Positions 1 through 35,086 of a DNA stretch of 64,000 nucleotides are shown piece after piece. The translations under genes were made by a program, and so were the position numbers. Numbering within the stretch: the stretch's first letter is position 1; each line of letters opens with the position of its first letter. Under the pieces are notes generated by a model that had not been told where the DNA came from, did no database searches, and worked only from the letters and a program-made list of their open reading frames with translations. This stretch comes from Streptococcus suis (GTDB taxonomy: Bacteria; Bacillota; Bacilli; Lactobacillales; Streptococcaceae). Location of the stretch: positions 1,674,001-1,738,000 of the forward strand of contig CP031970.1 in the NCBI GenBank assembly GCA_022354845.1, given 5' to 3'.

Positions 1-725
1 CTCTGTAAAAAGATATAGATTCCCAAGAAGCATATAATATAAATAAAGAGAATAGTTACAGATCTAACATCAATACCTTTATTTTCTAACAATCGCCACC
101 CCAGGCGAGCGTAGTTATACGATGGCAAGAAAGTTGCAATCTGAGAAAGAAATTTTGGCATAGCTGCCACTGGCATCCATAAACCACCCAAAAAAGAAAG
201 CACTAAATATGTTATTGTTCCGATTGGTTGAGACAAACTATCTAATCTACCGATTAGCAAGGCCATAATTAAAAATACAACACTTCCAATATTTAGTGTA
301 ATTCCTATATTAATCGTTTCAAGTACTCCTAAATTGATTCCTTTATAAAGGTAGGCAACTACAAACATAAGGAATGTAAAAGCAACTGAGATCAACAAAT
401 ATGAAAATACATGACTAATCACATAATAAATAGAATTAACTGGAGATACTCTCAAATAAGTATACCATTTTTTTTTTCGTTCATCTGCAATTTTAGTACC
501 AAGGAGATTGATTGCATTCCCCATAATTCCAAAAGCAATCATAGAAATTAAACAATACTCTGACCACGGTACACCGTTAACATTAGCATTTTTAGGAAAA
601 ATCGCTGTATATATAATATAAAAAATGACAGGCAAAGCAATGATAAATAATACATATTTGGTATCTCTAAAAACCCTTTTTATATCCAACCATATTAAGA
701 AGAAAAGTCTACTCGCTTGAAACAT
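1..725 (-). CDS. ABC-2 type exporter permease, cut by the left window edge
   Basis: The frame opens with ATG at 725 (MFQASRLFF) and stays open to base 1, giving about 241 residues and several hydrophobic segments typical of an ABC-2 exporter permease. A motif near the end, GGLWMPVAAMP, resembles the conserved G-x-W-x-P segment before the last helix of this family. The start overlaps the 3' end of the ATPase gene by 17 bases, so the two should be translationally coupled and form one transporter. The likely role is export of the Cys-rich peptide encoded upstream, or immunity to it. That role is inferred from position only. The C-terminus and any further genes of the operon lie outside the window. 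Confidence 0.8.
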   Translation of the reverse strand, partial: MFQASRLFFLIWLDIKRVFRDTKYVLFIIALPVIFYIIYTAIFPKNANVNGVPWSEYCLISMIAFGIMGNAINLLGTKIADERKKKWYTYLRVSPVNSIYYVISHVFSYLLISVAFTFLMFVVAYLYKGINLGVLETINIGITLNIGSVVFLIMALLIGRLDSLSQPIGTITYLVLSFLGGLWMPVAAMPKFLSQIATFLPSYNYARLGWRLLENKGIDVRSVTILFIYIICFLGIYIFLQ

Positions 726-1590
726 TTTCTAATACCTCCATAAAATATTGACGTAGATTACTTTGATTCTTTTTTATAATCGAAATAGGAATTTTTCCTA
801 TAGATACTACTTCATCTATCATTTGATACTTAAATTCTATTTCAGAATCAGTCTCTTCAAAACTAAATTTTTTAATTACTTCTAATTGTTTTTGAGTTAT
901 TTGACTCTTATCTACTGAATACGATGAACGTTTTTCGATTTTATCCTGAACATTAGTCATTTTACTATCTGAAACTAATAGCCCCTTTGACAAAATAAGT
1001 ACTCTATTACAGAACTCAGAAACTTCCTCCATATCATGACTAATCAAGATTATTGTCAAATCTTTACTGAACGAAAATGTGTTTAACGTCTCCCAAAATG
1101 CTTTTTTTGATACTACATCCATCCCGACTGTTGGTTCATCCAATATAAGTACTTTAGGATTATTAATTATCGCAGTAGCAAATTGAACTCGCCTTTGTTG
1201 CCCACCTGATAAAGAGTCACAATATTTATTCTTCACTGTTCTTAAGTTAACACTATCTAAAATACTTTCGACTGATTTGGAATTGGTTGAAAAGCGCTTC
1301 ACCATATCTAACCATTCGTAGACCTTCATCTTCTCAGGCATAGAAATTTCCTGCAACATAACCCCAACATCAGATTTAATATCGAAATTCCTCTTAACCT
1401 CCCCAGAATCTTGAGAAAGTATACCTAAAATTATTTTTATTAAAGTGGACTTTCCTTCACCATTCAAACCCAAAAGTCCAATGATATCACCCTTGTTCAC
1501 AACCAAGTCAACACCTTTTAATATTTGTTTATTTTTGAATGATTTGGTAATATTTGATATTTCAAAAACATTATTCACTTTAATCACCAC
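709..1590 (-). CDS. ABC transporter ATP-binding protein of the putative peptide cluster
   Basis: The 293-residue protein carries a Walker A motif (GLNGEGKST, residues 41-49, with Glu where Ala is usual), a Q-loop, the signature LSGGQQRR, Walker B VLILDEPT and a switch His (ISHDMEE). The last 90 residues are an extension with no recognised domain. This arrangement is common in drug and bacteriocin exporters of the ABC-2 type. The called start is GTG at 1590 and overlaps the preceding gene. A second GTG at 1578 is better spaced from a GGTGG sequence and could be the true start. It is transcribed with the 88-aa gene and the permease, downstream of the attenuator hairpin. Substrate specificity cannot be read from the sequence. 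Confidence 0.88.
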   Translation of the reverse strand: MVIKVNNVFEISNITKSFKNKQILKGVDLVVNKGDIIGLLGLNGEGKSTLIKIILGILSQDSGEVKRNFDIKSDVGVMLQEISMPEKMKVYEWLDMVKRFSTNSKSVESILDSVNLRTVKNKYCDSLSGGQQRRVQFATAIINNPKVLILDEPTVGMDVVSKKAFWETLNTFSFSKDLTIILISHDMEEVSEFCNRVLILSKGLLVSDSKMTNVQDKIEKRSSYSVDKSQITQKQLEVIKKFSFEETDSEIEFKYQMIDEVVSIGKIPISIIKKNQSNLRQYFMEVLENVSSE

Positions 1591-1846
1591 CCAACATCAA
1601 AATTATTTTATTAACAAAATCTCTTTGAACAGAAGTAAATTCGGGAATATTACTCTCAATAAATGAATCTGTCAAATATATTGCGCACAAATTATTATCA
1701 ATATCTTCATGATTCCTGTTTTGTAAACTTTTCCAACACAATTCAAACTCTTTCTGTGGGAAATCTTTCAATTCATAAATATTTGTTCCATCCTTGATAT
1801 AGATTTTTTCCTCCGATGACATATAATAAGTAATATTTGTTCTCAT
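1580..1846 (-). CDS. 88-aa protein of unknown function in the peptide cluster
   Basis: This is a small soluble acidic protein of 88 residues. The ATG at 1846 is preferred over the upstream TTG at 1852 because GGGAG lies 8 bases before it. It has no signal peptide and no membrane segment. A beta-rich N-terminal half (residues 10-30, with IYIKDGTNIYEL) followed by helical sequence is loosely reminiscent of PqqD-like RiPP recognition elements, which bind leader peptides. I did not recognise a family, so this is only a hypothesis. It lies directly after the attenuator hairpin and overlaps the ATPase gene, so it belongs to the cluster and could be a leader-binding, maturation or immunity factor. 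Confidence 0.7.
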   Translation of the reverse strand: MRTNITYYMSSEEKIYIKDGTNIYELKDFPQKEFELCWKSLQNRNHEDIDNNLCAIYLTDSFIESNIPEFTSVQRDFVNKIILMLGGD

Positions 1847-1870
1847 ACTCAAAACTCCCTAATTTATGGA

Positions 1871-1923
1871 TAAAAAAGCACTATAGAATCCAATTGAAAA
1901 GCAATGAATCACTATAGTGCTTT
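1871..1923 (-). terminator. Hairpin with T-run: attenuator between peptide gene and exporter genes
   Basis: Perfect 12-bp arms (1875-1886 and 1912-1923, AAAGCACTATAG and its complement) are followed on the minus strand by a run of six T. It lies between the Cys-rich peptide gene and the 88-aa gene. It should end most transcripts after the peptide genes and let a fraction through to the exporter genes, the arrangement known from the sagA operon. Confidence 0.8.
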
Positions 1924-1951
1924 ATTGACAACTAATAATTGGGTTAAAAAA

Positions 1952-2092
1952 TTAACCACAACAACAGCAACATGGACAGCAGCATAATGTTACACTCCAG
2001 TTCATTTGGTCACTAGATAAGAAATCATCTGTATCTAGTTTTTTGACTTCAAAACCTTGTGTTTGAAATTCTGAAATTTCTAGTTGTTCCAT
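1952..2092 (-). CDS. 46-aa peptide with a poly-cysteine C-terminus, candidate RiPP precursor
   Basis: The 46-residue frame starts at ATG 2092, with AAAGGA 9 bases upstream inside the end of the preceding gene, and stops at 1952. The first 30 residues are acidic and Cys-free (MEQLEISEF at the start, LDTDDFLSSDQM at 19-30). The tail reads NWSVTL followed by CCCPCCCCCG, so eight of the last ten residues are cysteine. A leader plus Cys-dense core, an ABC exporter downstream and an attenuator directly after the gene match linear azole peptide precursors such as SagA in outline. No modification enzymes are visible in the window; they may lie past the left edge. A metal-binding peptide is the main alternative. 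The frame itself is well supported; the function is inferred. Confidence 0.72.
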   Translation of the reverse strand: MEQLEISEFQTQGFEVKKLDTDDFLSSDQMNWSVTLCCCPCCCCCG

Positions 2093-2098
2093 AACTTT

Positions 2099-2185
2099 TT
2101 ATCCTTTCCAAAACAAGAAAACAAGCCCATAAATTAAACCAGATAGCAATCCGTAAATTGCAAATGTTTGTTTGCAGGGTTTCAT
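2099..2185 (-). CDS. 28-aa single-helix membrane peptide
   Basis: The frame starts at ATG 2185 behind a strong AAGGAGG at optimal spacing and encodes 28 residues: a short basic start (MKPCKQTF), one hydrophobic helix (about residues 8-26) and an end of FWKG. The stop codon lies 6 bases before the start of the Cys-rich peptide gene, and the last codons supply that gene's ribosome binding site, so the two are translationally linked. It is the first gene of the putative operon. It could be an immunity peptide, a membrane-active peptide or a translational lead gene. I recognise no family. Confidence 0.65.
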   Translation of the reverse strand: MKPCKQTFAIYGLLSGLIYGLVFLFWKG

Positions 2186-2206
2186 ATAGGTTTCCTCCTT
2201 ATTGAT

Positions 2207-2240
2207 AATTTGTCACCTTTGACATTGTTAGTATAACTCC
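2207..2240 (-). promoter_or_regulatory. Candidate promoter and operator of the peptide operon
   Basis: On the minus strand a TATACT hexamer near 2235-2230 lies upstream of the 28-aa gene, with no good -35. Just downstream is a perfect inverted repeat, TGTCA-N4-TGACA (2211-2224), placed where a repressor would block transcription. The weak -35 fits an activator-dependent promoter. Confidence 0.4.
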
Positions 2241-2289
2241 ATCAATAAAATTTATGTTCTTTTGGTCTATAAGTTGCAAAAATCAACAT

Positions 2290-2560
2290 ATAAGATGCAC
2301 AGGGGTTTGGGGATTCTCCCCAAAATAAAATTGAACTATCAGTTAAAAGGGTCAATCTGACCTTTACTGATGTTTCTATTTTAATGATAGTGTGTATACA
2401 CTGTCTGAGCTCGCAAAGTCCTTTTGATATTTTAAGGACATTTCCGTACTTGATACGGTGCCGTACATTGTCCGTACAGGGAGTTTTCACGACGACATGA
2501 TAAAAAACGTTGATCAGCATCAGCGTTTTTGCTATCATATTTTAAAATGAGGTCATCAAA
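2290..2560. other. Repeat-rich noncoding block, candidate oriT/oriV of the element
   Basis: Between the peptide operon and the mob genes, about 390 bases hold no convincing gene but dense dyads. These are a 7-bp-arm hairpin TTGGGGA-TTC-TCCCCAA (2307-2323), a longer imperfect hairpin around AAAGGGTCA-ATC-TGACCTTT (2347-2366), GTGTATACAC, CCGTA-N5-TACGG, and three CCGTAC direct repeats at 2444, 2461 and 2472. MobC-like genes begin 20-30 bases to the right. This is where an origin of transfer is expected, and the CCGTAC repeats could be iterons for the DnaD-like replication protein. No nick site is assigned. Confidence 0.5.
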
Positions 2561-2575
2561 ATGACTGGAAGACTA

Positions 2576-2932
2576 TCACTTCTTAGCTATTCGTTGCTTG
2601 TCTTCCTTCAATTGTTTCTCCACAAATTCTACAAGTTCCTCCATCAACTGACCTAATTCCATCAAATCTTGTTGGGAAATTTTTCCAAACTGGGTTGCGC
2701 TTTTAGCGAGGCTATTAATTACTCTACCAACAAATAATAATCTACCTGTCAGCGACAAATATTCTGGAAAGCTCACTGTCCAGACTTCAAAATCAGGTTT
2801 TAATAACTGCTTTCTAGCAAAACGAGAAAAGTTTGAAAAACCATCTTGCTTCATTCGCTCTAACAGTTTTTGATTTTCTTCTTCAGACAAAAAGACTTGT
2901 TTAATAACATTCCTAATTCTCTTTTTAACCAT
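2576..2932 (-). CDS. MobC-like relaxosome accessory protein (second copy)
   Basis: The 118-residue protein has a short basic start, VKKRIRNVIKQVFLSEEE, followed by GFSNFSRFARKQLL at about residues 31-44. This resembles the ribbon-helix-helix and S-x-(Y/F)-x-R signature of MobC-type mobilization proteins, with a helical C-terminal half. MobC proteins bind oriT and help the relaxase open it. The gene overlaps the stop of the preceding MobC-like gene and lies next to the candidate oriT. The two MobC-like proteins share layout (basic N-terminus, then SN(F/Y)-x-(R/-)FAR/YAR) but little identity, so they may act as a heteromer. Confidence 0.65.
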   Translation of the reverse strand: MVKKRIRNVIKQVFLSEEENQKLLERMKQDGFSNFSRFARKQLLKPDFEVWTVSFPEYLSLTGRLLFVGRVINSLAKSATQFGKISQQDLMELGQLMEELVEFVEKQLKEDKQRIAKK

Positions 2933-3294
2933 TAAGTTCCCTTAGATAATAATTTTCGTCTCTTTTTCTTGTGGTAACGTGTTAACTGCTTTTCATAATT
3001 TGAAACTAGCCTTCTGCTATAGTCCATAGCTCTGTAGGCATGACTATCTTGAGACTGCTCTGCAATTTTAGATAACTGCCTTAAATTATTTTCAATGCGT
3101 CTCAGAGAATAAATCATTTCATCAAACTGAGTATCATCAAATTGAATAAAGAGCGACGTTTCCTTAAAGAGCATCCGACGAGCATAATTAGAGAATGTCA
3201 CTAATCCTGAATCATCCACTAACTGATTAAGGACTTCATTCTGCAACTCCGTCACATAAAACTTCTTTAAAATAGTTCTGACACGTTCAGACAT
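2932..3294 (-). CDS. MobC-like relaxosome accessory protein (first copy)
   Basis: The 120-residue protein contains RVRTILKKFYVTELQNEVLNQL and VTFSNYARRMLFKE (about residues 32-45), matching the DNA-binding part of MobC/RHH mobilization proteins, followed by a helical region rich in Arg and Gln and a basic tail (KKKRRK). Its start overlaps the end of the 96-aa gene by 8 bases and its stop overlaps the next gene's start, so it sits inside a tightly coupled operon. It probably binds the dyads at 2290-2560. No relaxase gene accompanies it in the visible part of the element. Confidence 0.65.
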   Translation of the reverse strand: MSERVRTILKKFYVTELQNEVLNQLVDDSGLVTFSNYARRMLFKETSLFIQFDDTQFDEMIYSLRRIENNLRQLSKIAEQSQDSHAYRAMDYSRRLVSNYEKQLTRYHKKKRRKLLSKGT

Positions 3295-5430: not shown

Positions 5431-6585
5431 ATGTCTATACATAAATACGAAACAAAAAAAGGATTTTTTTATTATGTTAGCTTTTATATCGGTTTAGATG
5501 AATACGGAAAAAAGAAGAGACATCTAAAACGAGGCTTTAAAACTAAAAAAGAGGCTAGGCTATATGAAGCTAGGCTAGAAACTGGTCAACTTTCAGATGT
5601 TCTAAAAGCATCCAAGCAAAATACCAAGATCAGCTATCAGGAACTATATCAAGAATGGTTCCAAGCTTATCAAAATACTGTTGAAGCTACCACTGCTGCA
5701 AAGACTAAGGATATATACCGCATTCATATCCTTCCAATTTTTGGTTATAAGACAATTAGTCGTATCAGTCCATTGGAATGTCAAAATTTTATTACAGAAA
5801 AATCAAAGACCTTCAAAAATATGAAGCATATCAAGTCTTACACATCTAAAATATTTGATTTTGCCATCAACATGAACTATATTGACAAAAATCCGATGGC
5901 TAATGTTATCATGCCAAAAATAAAAAAAGAGAAATCAGAAAACTTCTGGTCTCTTGAAGAATTGCATCGCTTTTTAAAAATCGTAAAAGAGATAGAACCC
6001 TATAAACACTTTGCCTTGTTTCGTTTACTAGCTTATAGCGGCTTACGGAAGGGAGAACTTTACGCTCTAAGATGGGGAGACTTAGATTTTGATAATAATC
6101 TACTAACTATCAATAAGAGTATCGGTAGGATTGATGGTCATGCTATCGAAAAAGGTACTAAAAATAGTTTTTCAGTTCGCTCAATATATTTAGATAGTGA
6201 AACCATTGACATCTTAAAGCATTGGCAAGAACTTTATAGGCAGGAACAAAATCAGTTAGCGATTTCAAAAATTGACCTTTCTAATGAGTACATGTTTACC
6301 TACTTGACAAACTCGGACCAGTTTGAACCTTTACATGCGGACTATCTCAATAATATCCTCAAACGGATTATCAGAAAATACAAGTTAAAACCTATCAGTC
6401 CACACGGATTTCGACATACTCATGCTACACTTATGACAGAAATCGGAATTGACCCAACTAATACCTCTAAACGTTTAGGGCATGCAAGTAGTCAAATGAC
6501 ACTTGATATTTATACCCATACAACAAAAACTGGAGAGCAAAACTCCATCAAAAAATTTGCGGACTATCTCAATCAAGCAAAATAA
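5431..6585 (+). CDS. Tyrosine recombinase (integrase) of the rpsI-associated element
   Basis: The 384-residue protein has an N-terminal AP2-like arm-binding region (FYYVSFYIGLDEYGKKKRHLKRGFKTKKEA), a SAM-like core-binding domain (about 70-160) and the catalytic domain with Arg in YSGLRKGEL, His-x-x-Arg in HGFRHTHATL, His in LGHAS and the nucleophile Tyr in DIYTHTT. All five classic residues are present, so it looks active. GGAGAA precedes the ATG. The gene ends 137 bases from the rpsI stop codon and points at it, which places the attachment site at the rpsI 3' end. Tyrosine integrases of streptococcal mobile elements commonly use the ends of ribosomal protein genes. Confidence 0.93.
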   Translation: MSIHKYETKKGFFYYVSFYIGLDEYGKKKRHLKRGFKTKKEARLYEARLETGQLSDVLKASKQNTKISYQELYQEWFQAYQNTVEATTAAKTKDIYRIHILPIFGYKTISRISPLECQNFITEKSKTFKNMKHIKSYTSKIFDFAINMNYIDKNPMANVIMPKIKKEKSENFWSLEELHRFLKIVKEIEPYKHFALFRLLAYSGLRKGELYALRWGDLDFDNNLLTINKSIGRIDGHAIEKGTKNSFSVRSIYLDSETIDILKHWQELYRQEQNQLAISKIDLSNEYMFTYLTNSDQFEPLHADYLNNILKRIIRKYKLKPISPHGFRHTHATLMTEIGIDPTNTSKRLGHASSQMTLDIYTHTTKTGEQNSIKKFADYLNQAK

Positions 6586-6722: not shown

Positions 6723-7115
6723 TTAACGTTTTGAGAATTGTGATGCCTTGCGGGCTTTTTTGAGACCTGGTTTCTTACGTTCAACCATACGAGCGTCACG
6801 TGTAAGAAGGCCTGCGCGTTTCAATGAATCGCGGAAGTCTGGGTCTACTTGAAGCAATGCACGCGCGATACCGTGACGGATCGCACCTGATTGACCACCG
6901 TAACCACCACCGTTCACGTTAACGAAAACGTCGTATGAACCTTGTGTTGAAGTTACTGCGAATGGTTGGTTAATAACCAAACGAAGGTCAGCGTATGGGA
7001 TGTACTCTTCTACATCTTTTTTGTTTACTGTGATTTTACCAGTACCTGGGACCAAACGTACGCGTGCAACCGCGTTTTTACGACGACCAGTACCTGTGTA
7101 TTGTGCTTGTGCCAT
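6723..7115 (-). CDS. rpsI: 30S ribosomal protein S9
   Basis: The 130-residue protein begins with [20 protein letters not shown] and ends in the canonical [14 protein letters not shown], the C-terminal tail that reaches into the decoding centre near the P-site tRNA. It lies 19 bases after rplM in the usual L13-S9 operon. The coding sequence is complete, so insertion of the mobile element downstream did not alter the protein. The element-borne DNA begins within or just after its 3' end; the exact crossover cannot be defined without the other end of the element. Confidence 0.98.
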
Positions 7116-7581: not shown

Positions 7582-7716
7582 GATTTCTCCTATACGAATC
7601 GTTTTTGTTTACTAAGCGGATGTTCCGTTCCGCAGGTATTTGGAAGGTTCCGGGGCCTTTCAAATGGGGTAAACAATACCGTCTACCATTCTATCAAATA
7701 TGGTGGTTCTCGTCAA
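7582..7716 (-). promoter_or_regulatory. L13-leader-like 5' region and promoter of rplM-rpsI
   Basis: The promoter on the minus strand is TTGACG (7716-7711), 17-bp spacer, TAGAAT (7693-7688). The transcript then runs through about 100 bases with dyads (GGTTCCGGGGCC and GCGGAACGGAAC segments) before rplM. An autoregulatory L13 leader is known in Firmicutes at this place. I infer it from position and pairing, without a model match. Confidence 0.6.
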
Positions 7717-8515: not shown

Positions 8516-9379
8516 CTATGCTCTCATTTCTGTCCCAATTGATAAAATCGCTAAGACTCCTGTACCTGTATGAGTGGCAATAACTGGTCCTAATTCTGTC
8601 AATAGAACATCAGAAACACGGTCGTCTTCCAATAAAGTAGATTTGACGCCCTCTGCCGCCTCAATATCACCCGTATAAGCAACCATGATTGTAGAATGAT
8701 CCAAGTTATCCAAGGTCAGGTTCAACATTTGCTTGATTCCTTTTTTACGACCACGGATTTTAGCTATTGATTCTAGTTTTCCATCAGCATTGAGCGAAAT
8801 GAGGGGCTTGATATTCACTAATCCACCGATCAAACCTGCAGCTTTGGACAGACGGCCACCACGCACTAAGTGTTGTAAATCATCAACTAAGAGATAGGTC
8901 CGCAAGCGTGGCACCAAATCTTCTACGATTGCCATGGTCTCCACCAATGTTTTACCCGCAGCACGCGCCTCAACGGCTTTCATAACAAGATAGCCTTCAC
9001 CTATGGTCGCCGCCTTCGTATCAATAATGGAAATGGCTGCTTCCGGGTATTGATCCAAGACCATGTCGCGTGCAATGACCGCACTCTGATAGGTCCCTGA
9101 AAGAGCTGCTGAGAAAGCGAGATAAAGCACCTCTTGACCTTCCTTGGCTGCCACTTCAAAAACTTCTTCAAACTGACCGACATTTACTTGACTGGTCATC
9201 GGCTGGCTACCACTTTCCATCTTCTCTAGCAATGTAGCACTAGTAAGGCGATTGTCCCCTACAGTCTCATAGGTTTGACCATCTAAATTGATGGTCAAGC
9301 CTAGTACATCAACCCCATGTTCTTCCACCCATCCTTTTGACAAATCCGAGGTAGAATCCGTTACTATTTTAAAACTCAC
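8516..9379 (-). CDS. DegV family protein (FakB-type fatty acid-binding subunit)
   Basis: The 287-residue protein has the DegV hallmarks: KIVTDSTSDLSKG at the start, TSQVNVGQFEEVFE around residue 60, and FSAALSGTYQSA around 85-97, where Ser contacts the bound fatty acid. DegV/FakB proteins carry exogenous fatty acids and present them to the kinase FakA. A FakA-type kinase gene is present at 25258-26922. The start overlaps the stop of the rae1 gene by 4 bases, so it is the last gene of an rlmB-rae1-degV operon. Confidence 0.9.
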   Translation of the reverse strand: MSFKIVTDSTSDLSKGWVEEHGVDVLGLTINLDGQTYETVGDNRLTSATLLEKMESGSQPMTSQVNVGQFEEVFEVAAKEGQEVLYLAFSAALSGTYQSAVIARDMVLDQYPEAAISIIDTKAATIGEGYLVMKAVEARAAGKTLVETMAIVEDLVPRLRTYLLVDDLQHLVRGGRLSKAAGLIGGLVNIKPLISLNADGKLESIAKIRGRKKGIKQMLNLTLDNLDHSTIMVAYTGDIEAAEGVKSTLLEDDRVSDVLLTELGPVIATHTGTGVLAILSIGTEMRA

Positions 9380-9897
9380 TCAGTCATATCCTCCATCACT
9401 TCTTTTAAGGCTTTAAACTGCTGATCTGACCAGGGATTCAGACGCGGGGTGTACAATTCAACTTGATCCACAAATTTATCCAAATCCTTTTTGATTACAT
9501 TTGTCCGTTCTTCTAGCTCACGCGCAGATACTCGTAAGGCTCCCTGTGAAAAAACAACCCATTGCTCATTTAAATCACTCGTTGCTACCGTAACCTGTTT
9601 GCGAGGATCACTATTTAACTCTGCACTCAAGCGTTCAATATAGCTATCTGCCGTTTCTTCCTCTTCAGTAAACACAACTTGAACATTAAATTCATCATAA
9701 TGCTGACGACTTCCGGGAACATGATGAGCATCAAAAACGCAAATGATGTCTATATTCTCAAATGAAGCATAGTGGGAAAGAATGCGAAGCAAGGTAGTCC
9801 TTGCGGCATCTAAATGACCTTTTTTGAAATCTTGTTTAGTTGATCTCCAAAAAGCAATCATATTATAACCATCAACAAGCAGAATCTTTTCTTTCAT
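9376..9897 (-). CDS. rae1: Rae1/YacP-type NYN-domain ribosome-associated endonuclease
   Basis: The 173-residue protein is an NYN/PIN-like domain: ILLVDGYNMIAFW at the start with the first catalytic Asp, ICVFDAHHVPGS, EETADSYIERL, and VTVATSDLNEQW. This matches YacP, known as Rae1 in Bacillus, which cleaves mRNA in the ribosome A site. It begins at the base directly before the stop codon of rlmB, the same order as in many Firmicutes, and overlaps the degV-type gene by 4 bases. Confidence 0.88.
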   Translation of the reverse strand: MKEKILLVDGYNMIAFWRSTKQDFKKGHLDAARTTLLRILSHYASFENIDIICVFDAHHVPGSRQHYDEFNVQVVFTEEEETADSYIERLSAELNSDPRKQVTVATSDLNEQWVVFSQGALRVSARELEERTNVIKKDLDKFVDQVELYTPRLNPWSDQQFKALKEVMEDMTE

Positions 9898-33671: not shown

Positions 33672-35086
33672 GGCTCTTTGTCAACTGTAGTGGGTAGATG
33701 AAAAGCTAACACCTAGAGAGGATGAACTTCGTCCTCTCTTTCTTTATGTTCAATGCAATCAAAATCCGTTTTTTAAAGTTTTCAAAGTTCCTGAACCCAA
33801 AGGCATTTCTCTTAATGACTTTGATGAGATTATTGGTAGCTTCCAGTTTGGCGTTTGAATAAGGCAATTCTAGAGCATTCAAAACCTTGTCTTTATCCTT
33901 TAGAAATGTCTTCAATACCGTCTGGAAAATAGGATTAACGGTGGCTATTTCCTGTTCGATGAGGTCAAAGAAATGGTCTGAGTTCTTCTCTTGGAAATGA
34001 AATAAGAGAAGCTGATAGAGTTCATAGTGTTGTCGTAGTTCCTCGGAGAAAGACAGGAGTTTTTCTAGGATTTCCTTGTTAGTCAAATGCATGCGAAACA
34101 TAGGGCGATAAAATCGTTTATCGCTGAGTTTACGGCTATCTTGTTGTATCAATTTCCAGTAACGTTTCAAGGCTCGGTATTCCTGCGATTTTCTGTTGAA
34201 CTGATTCATAATTTGAATACGGACACGGTTCATAGCACGACTAAGGTGTTGCACGATATGAAAGCGGTCGAGTACAATTTTTGCATTCGGAAAAAGCTGT
34301 TTAGCAAGTTGATAATAGGGACTAAACATATCCATGGTAATCACTTTGACCCGATTTCTAACCTTTCTAGGATAGCGTAGAAAGTGGTTTCGGATGGTTG
34401 CTTGAGTTCTTCCGTCCAGAATGGTTATGACATTTAGGGAGTCGAAATCTTGAGCGATGAAGCTCATTTTCCCCTTCTTGAAGGCATACTCGTCCCAGCT
34501 CATCACCTCAGGTAAGGTATTCCAATCCGTTTCAAACTTGAACTCATTTAGCTTTCTTATAACTGATGATGTTGAGATAGATAGCCTGTGTGCAATATGT
34601 TGCATTGCTTGATTTTCGATGAGTAATTGAGCGATCTTCTGGTTAACAGCGACAGAGATTTGGTGGTTCTTCTTGACAAGAGGAGTTTCAGCGACCGCCA
34701 TTTTTCCGCAATCTTTACACTTGAAACGACGCTTTCGAAGACGGATAAGTAAAGGGTAGCCAGCAGTTTCTAGGTAGGGGATTTTAGAAGTTTTCTGGTA
34801 GTCGTACTTAGCCATTTGTCCCTTGCATTTTGGGCATTTAGGGGCTGTGTAATCCAAGTGACCGTGGAGTTCTAAGTGAGTCCCCATATCATATTCATCA
34901 GTGATAGTGATATTTTTGTCTTTAATTCTGAGAAAATTTGTGATAAGATTTAGTTGTTCCATATGAACCCTTTCTAATGTGAGTTTCGTCGCTTTTCATT
35001 ATAGGTCATATGGGACTTTTTTTCTACACTAAAAAAAGCTCTATAATCTCTACAGTGGATTTACCCACTACAGAAATTATAGAGCC
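33672..35086 (-). mobile_element. Intact ISL3-family insertion sequence
   Basis: 1415 bp with imperfect terminal repeats (left GGCTCT-N8-CTGTAGTGGGTA, right the complement) and a perfect 8-bp target duplication ATTTTTTC at 33664-33671 and 35087-35094. The transposase is full length. The right end carries an extra hairpin (35038-35085). Intact ends and direct repeats indicate a recent insertion. Confidence 0.95.
33706..34962 (-). CDS. ISL3-family transposase
   Basis: The 418-residue protein has two N-terminal zinc-finger-like CxxC pairs (CPKCKG at about 38 and CKDCGK at about 82), an HTH (IAHRLSISTSSVIRKLNEF) and a DDE catalytic region with MSWDEYAFKKG, ITMDMFSPYYQLAKQLFPNAKIVLDRFHIVQHLSRAMNRVR and the C-terminal YSNAKLEATNNLIKVIKRNAFGFRNFENFKKRI. 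It is complete with no stop or shift and looks active. Confidence 0.96.
   Translation of the reverse strand: MEQLNLITNFLRIKDKNITITDEYDMGTHLELHGHLDYTAPKCPKCKGQMAKYDYQKTSKIPYLETAGYPLLIRLRKRRFKCKDCGKMAVAETPLVKKNHQISVAVNQKIAQLLIENQAMQHIAHRLSISTSSVIRKLNEFKFETDWNTLPEVMSWDEYAFKKGKMSFIAQDFDSLNVITILDGRTQATIRNHFLRYPRKVRNRVKVITMDMFSPYYQLAKQLFPNAKIVLDRFHIVQHLSRAMNRVRIQIMNQFNRKSQEYRALKRYWKLIQQDSRKLSDKRFYRPMFRMHLTNKEILEKLLSFSEELRQHYELYQLLLFHFQEKNSDHFFDLIEQEIATVNPIFQTVLKTFLKDKDKVLNALELPYSNAKLEATNNLIKVIKRNAFGFRNFENFKKRILIALNIKKERTKFILSRC

What the first reader, a model, noticed from the sequence alone, without database searches (positions are those of the whole stretch)
1..2240. Candidate new RiPP locus with a poly-cysteine core peptide CCCPCCCCCG
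Two small genes that standard gene callers could miss (28 and 46 codons) sit before an attenuator, an 88-aa protein and an ABC exporter. Eight of the last ten residues of the 46-aa peptide are Cys, after a Cys-free acidic leader-like part. Outline features match linear azole peptides (SagA, clostridiolysin), but the core is unusually short and ends in Gly, and I know no named peptide with this tail. The locus is carried by a mobilizable element, as bacteriocin cargo often is.
Basis: partly seen in the sequence, partly recalled or inferred. Interest (0 to 1): 0.85.

Follow-up and report, generated by a model that had tools for sequence, protein, structure and literature searches.

The report
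Gutted azole-peptide bacteriocin operon
A streptococcal mobile element still carries the gene for a cysteine-tailed peptide, the pump and the switch of an azole-peptide (streptolysin-like) toxin or bacteriocin cluster, but one deletion has removed the enzymes that would make the peptide active; fuller relatives exist in other bacteria.

Summary
The 46-aa peptide (2092..1952, minus) is a precursor of an azole peptide (LAP/TOMM). In a complete Streptococcus genome (G044) and in a genome of another family of the order (G412), homologues ending CCCPCCCCC(V or nothing) are followed by a SagC-like protein, a YcaO cyclodehydratase, a SagB dehydrogenase, a probable M16-type protease, an ABC exporter, a LytTR regulator and a membrane protein. 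The window's 88-aa ORF is an in-frame fusion of the first ~53 residues of the SagC-like protein to the last ~35 of the protease-like one: a deletion of about 3.6 kb. No YcaO was found in this complete genome. What remains is a LytTR-type promoter with direct repeats, a small membrane peptide, the precursor, its terminator, the exporter and the LytTR/membrane pair, as cargo of a 7.9-kb element in rpsI. Other lesions hit the same cluster in S. gallolyticus, S. suis and G197. The family was named 'gallolytisin' in silico in 2015 (Cys4XaaCys4 core; here Cys3ProCys5). This strain most likely makes no active product; retained immunity or sensing is inferred only.

The parts
2269..2298 (-). Two 9-bp direct repeats (2298..2290 GCATCTTAT, 2277..2269 GCAACTTAT; 8 of 9 identical) 12 bp apart: probable LytTR binding site
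   Evidence: Repeats at the same 12-bp spacing in G044 (exact), G045 and G412; spacing and position as published for LytTR regulatory systems (PMC6193735 passages)
2230..2258 (-). Predicted operon promoter: -35 AACATA 2258..2253, 17 bp, -10 TATACT 2235..2230; -35 lies 10 bp after the second repeat
   Evidence: Weak -35 (7 of 12 consensus bases in all), as expected for an activated promoter; not listed by the sigma-70 scan
2099..2185 (-). 28-aa hydrophobic peptide, small membrane protein of the cluster, function unknown
   Evidence: counterparts directly before the precursor in G044, G045 and G412
1952..2092 (-). 46-aa azole-peptide precursor, core CCCPCCCCCG
   Evidence: homologues under purifying selection; those of G044, G045 and G412 stand next to TOMM genes or their remains
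1872..1923 (-). Terminator-like hairpin and T run between precursor and downstream genes
   Evidence: z -4.6; hairpins at the same place in G045 (near-identical), G044, G412 and the L. plantarum plasmid (other sequences). The consensus scan did not list it
1580..1846 (-). 88-aa fusion ORF: N-terminal ~53 aa of a SagC-like leader-binding protein joined in frame to the C-terminal ~35 aa of a protease-like protein
   Evidence: left side matches G045 contig 113, right side matches G045 contig 101 and G197, switching at about 1689-1692
709..1590 (-). ABC transporter ATPase; its GTG start overlaps the stop of the fusion ORF
   Evidence: Pfam ABC_tran 98.6 bits; dN/dS 0.14 against G045
1..725 (-). 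ABC-2 permease (247 aa), running past the window edge; beyond it come a LytTR regulator (genome 1673972..1673457) and a 130-aa membrane protein (1673457..1673065)
   Evidence: permease found in 4 of 284 Streptococcus genomes at E <= 1e-40
2932..3294 (-). NikA-like mobilization protein of the carrier element
   Evidence: Pfam PF21983 34.8 bits, cut-off 27
5431..6585 (+). Tyrosine integrase of the carrier element, next to the 3' end of rpsI
   Evidence: Pfam Phage_integrase 90.4 bits
6723..6773 (+). 3' end of rpsI (gene named by my reading of the ORF), attachment site; second copy (41 of 51 bases) at genome 1672832, giving an element of about 7.9 kb
   Evidence: apart from further copies at L002 929 (41) and 4506 (36), the best other place scores 27 in L002 and 29 in the window

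Best explanation
This is a deletion remnant of a linear azole peptide (LAP/TOMM) cluster close to the gallolytisin group, carried by an rpsI-integrated mobilizable element. In fuller relatives a LytTR regulator, held back by the adjacent membrane protein, activates a promoter with two direct repeats; the precursor is made in excess because a terminator follows it; the SagC-like protein binds the leader; YcaO and SagB turn the Cys run into thiazolines and thiazoles; an M16-type protease removes the leader; the ABC pump exports the product and probably gives immunity. In this strain one in-frame deletion removed the rest of the SagC-like gene, YcaO, SagB and nearly all of the protease gene, so the peptide cannot be modified; promoter, precursor, pump and regulator pair remain. 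Shown: gene content, fusion, absence of YcaO, conservation, repeats. Inferred: chemistry, protease class, regulation, pump function, bacteriocin activity.
For: Synteny in G044 (L033; SagB 122.4 bits above cut-off 78.4, YcaO Pfam 128.5 bits, SagC-like 34.3 bits against cut-off 36.9) and in G412 of another family, and the same order with a Pfam M16 protease on an L. plantarum plasmid. The YcaO profile finds MusD, TruD and LynD, then MJ1094 and another YcaO, among solved structures (5 sequences). Fusion ORF; the parental flanks meet at about 1690 with a short overlap. No YcaO in G000. The same fusion with two residue changes on another contig (P0009), and a different fusion of the first 26 precursor residues to the same protease tail in S. 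suis (P0013). Precursor under purifying selection. LytTR repeats 12 bp apart with -35 10 bp further on in the window and G412, and repeats 12 bp apart in G044 and G045, matching PMC6193735; none in 300 bp upstream of the L. plantarum precursor, whose listed neighbours include no LytTR gene.
Against: No intact cluster nearer than about 70-80% identity was found, so the deleted stretch is inferred from G044 and from the two separated flanks in G045. G412's permease frame is interrupted in the held sequence, so G044 is the only copy of this type seen whole. The M16 assignment rests on an HxxEH motif and gene order: Pfam, PDB profile search, BLASTP (E 0.06), hhalign and a low-confidence model (pLDDT 40) did not confirm it. 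The YcaO of G044 and G412 (172.9 and 169.6 bits against 219.25) and their SagC-like proteins lie below curated NCBIfam cut-offs. Repeats with one mismatch at 12-bp spacing arise in 36 of 1000 simulated window upstream regions, so the window copy alone is weak; its strength is the recurrence across loci.
Confidence: 0.88

Rival explanations
1. Immunity-only (cheater) cassette: the deletion was favoured because it drops production cost but keeps the regulated pump, which protects against the product of intact neighbours. In-frame joining keeps ribosomes running into the overlapping ATPase start.
For: Two different fusions (window and S. suis P0013) are both in frame and both end in the protease tail that precedes the ATPase here. 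ATPase, permease, LytTR and membrane protein are intact here with dN/dS 0.13-0.20. Promoter with repeats is kept in G000 and in G197.
Against: Other remnants lose the pump too: the G197 ATPase frame is broken, the G045 permease is broken and its regulator cut short. dN/dS mostly reflects time before the deletion. That the pump gives immunity is untested; P0013's neighbours were not seen.
Confidence: 0.3
2. A working but split RiPP locus: the precursor is modified by enzymes encoded elsewhere (in trans), the 88-aa protein acting as a stand-alone leader-binding (RRE) protein.
For: The fusion keeps the strand part of the leader-binding domain; the model shows three strands and a helix (pLDDT 64). 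Stand-alone leader-binding proteins exist in other RiPPs (recalled).
Against: No YcaO in the complete genome; the rest of the domain is replaced by the protease tail; fold search gave nothing at E <= 0.001.
Confidence: 0.04
3. The poly-Cys peptide acts unmodified, for example by binding metal.
For: Eight Cys in ten residues can bind soft metals (general chemistry, not tested); the strain has no YcaO.
Against: In G044 and G412 the same core sits beside azole-forming machinery, and leader as well as core is conserved.
Confidence: 0.05
4. A streptolysin S-type cytolysin locus (SagA family).
For: Same B, C, D enzyme types, ABC exporter and terminator after the precursor in the relatives.
Against: No Gly plus 10 contiguous heterocyclizable residues (5 Cys at most), no CaaX protease among the cluster proteins scanned, M16-like protein instead (definition in PMC4603692 passages).
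Confidence: 0.06

Closest known systems
Gallolytisins (TOMM group named by Cox et al. 2015, PMC4603692)
   Same: Reported in 20 strains including S. gallolyticus; separate C and D proteins, ABC transporters and a regulator; core of eight Cys broken by one residue that can be Pro (section 24)
   Different: Published core is Cys4XaaCys4, here Cys3ProCys5; the window copy has lost C, D and B; LytTR repeats, membrane protein, M16-like protein and small membrane peptide are not in the section I read
Streptolysin S / listeriolysin S family (SagA, LlsA)
   Same: SagB/C/D-type enzymes, ABC exporter, poly-Cys core, terminator after the precursor (SLS terminator recalled); Tn7088 in L. crispatus is an IME with an LLS-like cluster broken by IS elements (PMC10763512 passages)
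   Different: Shorter Pro-interrupted core, no CaaX protease seen, LytTR control
Poly-Cys LAP cluster of L. plantarum plasmid pPB (NZ_CP104086.1)
   Same: Gene order C, D, B, M16 insulinase-family protease, ATPase, permease; 35-aa precursor ending WCCLFCCCC
   Different: YcaO 28.5% identical to that of G044, no LytTR gene among the listed features and no repeats found
LytTR Regulatory Systems (HdrRM, BrsRM and ABC-linked SMU_433/434, SMU_1070c/1069c of S. mutans)
   Same: LytTR regulator upstream of a membrane protein, ABC genes in the operon, 9-bp direct repeats 12 bp apart, 10 bp before -35 (PMC6193735 passages)
   Different: Here the operon also holds, or held, a RiPP pathway; inhibitor function untested; no Pfam family was matched above cut-off by the membrane protein

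Membership tests
[quoted passage not shown]
   Window genome: 0 YcaO matches. Met in relatives G044 and G412, so the family, not this copy, is TOMM
[quoted passage not shown]
   46 aa, 8 Cys in last 10
Gallolytisin | Discrete C and D proteins | tested here: not met
   Absent in window copy (fusion remnant only); met in G044 and G412
Gallolytisin | Cys4XaaCys4 with Xaa Pro, Ala or Asp | tested here: not met
   Cys3ProCys5. DNA pattern for Cys4XaaCys4: 6 of 284 Streptococcus genomes match, Xaa codons TCT, CTC, TTC, AGG, TTC, CTC, none Pro/Ala/Asp; the paper's sequence table could not be read
Gallolytisin | ABC transporters and a regulator | tested here: met
   ATPase, permease, LytTR
Gallolytisin | D protein closest to that of plantazolicin | not tested
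   No plantazolicin D sequence was compared
Streptolysin S-type cytolysins | Gly followed by 10 or more heterocyclizable residues | tested here: not met
   Longest Cys run is 5 (definition)
Streptolysin S-type cytolysins | CaaX-type protease in the cluster | tested here: not met
   None by Pfam among 8 G044 proteins and 6 G412 proteins scanned, nor the 7 of the window cluster; other neighbouring ORFs were not scanned
Streptolysin S-type cytolysins | Cytolytic activity | not testable with these tools
   Needs culture work
LytTR Regulatory System | LytTR regulator followed by membrane protein | tested here: met
   (LytTR 63 bits; 130-aa hydrophobic protein, no Pfam hit above cut-off)
LytTR Regulatory System | Direct repeats about 9 bp, 11-13 bp apart, just upstream of -35 | tested here: met
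   window 8 of 9 identical, 12 bp apart, -35 10 bp on; one-mismatch pairs also arise in 36 of 1000 simulations
LytTR Regulatory System | Membrane protein inhibits the regulator | not testable with these tools
   Needs deletion and reporter assay
M16 metallopeptidase (330-aa protein of fuller relatives) | HxxEH and downstream Glu, M16 fold | tested here: inconclusive
   HxxEH and an EIxQE stretch conserved in G044, G412 and the G045 piece (motif recalled); no Pfam, PDB or fold support

The most novel reading that the evidence does not exclude
The remnant is a selected, LytTR-switched 'defence-only' cassette: mobile elements repeatedly shed the azole-forming enzymes while keeping the pump, the regulator pair and the precursor leader, so that carriers sense and survive the product of intact neighbours; the leader-binding/protease-tail fusion itself may have a use.
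Probability: 0.18. Interest if true: 0.6.

Novelty: new member of a known kind. Interest (0 to 1): 0.45.

Why it matters
It gives anatomy to a TOMM group for which the held library has one paper: a conserved Cys3ProCys5 core across two bacterial families, the likely leader protease, a small membrane peptide and a LytTR switch with its promoter. It also shows that tail, terminator and pump alone do not make a working RiPP locus, since this copy lost its enzymes by one clean deletion, and it offers a natural set of whole and gutted versions for testing whether such remnants are decay or kept immunity.

Tried and rejected
Rejected or empty leads. (1) Modification genes to the left of the window: none recognised among the ORFs listed to genome 1656401 (60 aa or more near, 90 aa or more in the far 7 kb); the stretch holds the LytTR pair, an integrase remnant, an Eco57I/ResIII restriction system and a 1251-aa protein. 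(2) DNA relatives of window 1-2300 in phages (0) and plasmids (2 records, 63-base ATPase matches); C protein in phages 0, in viral contigs 0. (3) Precursor search: 94 of 284 Streptococcus genomes match at E <= 0.1, of which I accept 3 (G000, G045, G044; E <= 1.2e-22); the rest have E >= 7e-4 (also a second place in G000 at 0.005 with three stops), many with stops; the best of them (G043) was read and lies antisense to an unrelated gene. (4) Family searches of precursor, 28-aa and 88-aa ORFs: nothing above cut-off. (5) Structure models: protease-like P0017 pLDDT 40, fusion ORF pLDDT 64; fold searches gave no match at E <= 0.001 and are not used as evidence. (6) PDB sequence searches of the C and M16-like proteins: only chance hits. 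(8) Name of the window's species: not established beyond genus; G045 contig 113 (L034) equals NZ_NETH01000091.1, S. gallolyticus BI02 (L035). (9) An offset error in the script gave wrong G045 values for the 28-aa and 46-aa ORFs; the corrected 46-aa comparison is and only that is used.
Full report
What is there. On the minus strand of window 1-2300 lie a 28-aa hydrophobic peptide (2185..2099), a 46-aa peptide ending CCCPCCCCCG (2092..1952), a strong hairpin with a T run (1923..1872; z -4.6), an 88-aa ORF (1846..1580), an ABC ATPase (1590..709) and a permease (725 leftwards). The permease ends past the window edge and is followed by a LytTR regulator and a 130-aa membrane protein. Of 1347 six-frame segments of at least 25 aa only this one has 5 or more Cys in its last ten.

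No enzymes here. Among the ORFs listed down to genome position 1656401 I recognised no modification gene, and a YcaO family search of the complete 2,026,249-base genome gave 0 matches while 5 of 14 control genomes rang. Other RiPP enzyme families were not searched genome-wide.

Relatives explain it. The peptide occurs in 3 of 284 Streptococcus genomes at E <= 1.2e-22, G000 included. In G044 (one contig, 2.5 Mb) the peptide (80% identical, ending CCCPCCCCCV) is followed by a 289-aa SagC-like protein (TIGR03882, 34.3 bits against cut-off 36.9), a YcaO/SagD protein (Pfam 128.5 bits; TIGR03604 172.9 against 219.25), a SagB dehydrogenase (122.4 bits, cut-off 78.4), a 330-aa protein, ATPase, permease, LytTR and membrane protein. 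G412, a genome of another family of the order, came from a YcaO search (7 of 395 genomes at E <= 1e-20). It has the same nine genes, precursor included, in the same order; its precursor ends CCCPCCCCC with nothing after, and its permease frame is interrupted in the held sequence. An L. plantarum conjugative plasmid has the order C, YcaO, SagB, M16 insulinase, ATPase, permease with a 35-aa precursor ending WCCLFCCCC. The three YcaO proteins end in PHPFP, and the profile of two of them finds MusD, TruD and LynD first in the PDB.

The deletion. Residues 1 to about 53 of the window's 88-aa ORF follow the SagC-like protein (10 differences in 155 bases against G045; alignment); the last ~35 follow the C-terminus of the 330-aa protein. 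At the DNA level the left side matches G045 contig 113 at 93% and the right side matches G045 contig 101 at 95% and G197 at 97%, switching at about 1689-1692 with an overlap of a few bases. Scaled on G044 coordinates (my arithmetic) about 3.6 kb is missing: most of the SagC-like gene, YcaO, SagB and nearly all of the 330-aa gene. The same fusion with two residue changes lies on another contig of 1454 bases (P0009, source not shown). S. suis P0013 is a second, larger in-frame fusion of precursor residues 1-26 to the same tail. P0010, P0011 and P0012 are shortened SagC-like ORFs that may be true truncations or contig-end effects. P0003 and P0006 are precursor variants, P0006 with the Cys run lost by a frame change. 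G045 (S. gallolyticus BI02) has YcaO pieces on three contigs (one with a stop inside), transposase-like ORFs beside them by my reading, a broken 330-aa gene, a broken permease and a shortened regulator. In G197 the promoter region runs straight into the 330-aa gene, so precursor, C, YcaO and SagB are missing at the locus; the 330-aa and ATPase frames are broken, permease, LytTR and membrane protein are open. So of the 4 of 284 Streptococcus genomes that hold the permease at E <= 1e-40, one has a whole cluster.

The 330-aa protein. It fills the place of the M16 protease of the plasmid cluster. HxxEH and an EIxQE stretch are kept in G044, G412 and the G045 piece (motif recalled). Pfam, BLASTP, hhalign, PDB profiles and a low-confidence model do not confirm it, and its only hit in the large protein database is a 99% copy. 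I call it probably M16-like. A review of RiPP leader proteases lists M103 proteins for LAPs and M16 for class III lanthipeptides (passages of PMC10885120).

The switch. Passages of PMC6193735 describe LytTR regulatory systems: a LytTR regulator next to a membrane inhibitor, and direct repeats mostly 12 bp apart, with a bias to 10 bp before -35. Upstream of the 28-aa ORF stand GCATCTTAT and GCAACTTAT 12 bp apart, then 10 bp, AACATA, 17 bp, TATACT. G044 has an exact GCATCTTAT pair at the same spacing, G412 a GTAACTTAT pair with -35 10 bp on, G045 the window's form with one more change; the 300 bp before the L. plantarum precursor have none. In simulations of the window, G044 and G045 upstream regions an exact pair appears in 0 to 3 of 1000 sequences, a pair with up to one mismatch in 36 to 64 of 1000; G412 was not simulated. 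The simple sigma-70 scan did not list this promoter. The inhibitor role is inferred.

Selection. Precursor against G044: dS 1.93, dN 0.13; against G045 all 3 differences are synonymous. ATPase, permease, LytTR and membrane protein against nearest relatives: dN/dS 0.14, 0.13, 0.20, 0.18. These numbers mostly describe the time before the deletion. The fusion ORF stop overlaps the ATPase GTG start, so an in-frame deletion keeps translation coupled; that is a possible reason for two in-frame events, whose chance without selection is 1 in 9, and one of which was found by a search that favours open frames.

Carrier. Integrase, HTH regulator, DnaB_2-like and NikA-like proteins lie between the cassette and rpsI. 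The rpsI 3' end (6723-6773) has a copy at genome 1672832 (41 of 51), so the element is about 7.9 kb and the cassette is its distal cargo. In G044 the cassette has another neighbour set, next to hslO-like and dusB-like genes (names from my reading of the ORFs).

Known or new. Section 24 of Cox et al. 2015 (PMC4603692, that section read whole) names gallolytisins: 20 strains including S. gallolyticus, separate C and D proteins, D most like that of plantazolicin, ABC transporters, a regulator, seven precursors with Cys4XaaCys4. What I tested fits except the place of the Xaa: here Cys3ProCys5, in S. gallolyticus BI02 too; the plantazolicin likeness was not tested. No Cys4-Pro/Ala/Asp-Cys4 was found in 284 Streptococcus genomes. 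The word gallolytisin occurs in one paper of the library and the string CCCPCCCCC in none. Cytolysin criteria (PMC4603692 passages; PMC4513790 passages) are not met. A mobile element with an IS-broken listeriolysin-like cluster is on record (Tn7088, PMC10763512 passages), so decay of such cargo has precedent.

Verdict. Real feature, correctly read as a RiPP precursor, wrongly taken for a working new locus. Most likely function now: none as a bacteriocin; possibly kept immunity or sensing.

Noticed in passing
L002 929, 4506 and 16432 (genome 1657329, 1660906, 1672832): Three partial copies of the rpsI 3' end (41, 36 and 41 of 51 bases) left of the element, suggesting several elements stacked at rpsI; between them lie an Eco57I/ResIII restriction system and a 1251-aa protein of unknown type.
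   Followed up: partly
L043 (G197) 1889-2092 and 9166-9492: The promoter-proximal stretch of the cassette (parts of window 2574-2210) occurs twice in G197, on both sides of a different gene group with two radical-SAM-like ORFs and a large membrane protein (names by eye).
   Followed up: no
L047 (G064), minus strand: Two small open frames ending WCCCCYFCTSTGK and YCCCCYFCTSTGK near a weak SagC-like match: perhaps another streptococcal azole peptide with twin precursors.
   Followed up: no
L048 7532-7639 (+): 35-aa poly-Cys precursor MTNVRVQEVVDTQKGFETPFESGVTVWCCLFCCCC on L. plantarum plasmid pPB, not among the genes listed for it.
   Followed up: partly
L054 (G381), minus strand: Small open frame ending GGWCCSCCCWCWLTVFG beside a YcaO match, another candidate Cys/Trp-rich precursor.
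   Followed up: no
window 34976-35086: Rfam Streptococcus sRNA Srn266 (112 bits).
   Followed up: no
window 7602-7680: Ribosomal protein L13 leader (58.8 bits) upstream of what I read as the L13-S9 operon into which the element is inserted.
   Followed up: no
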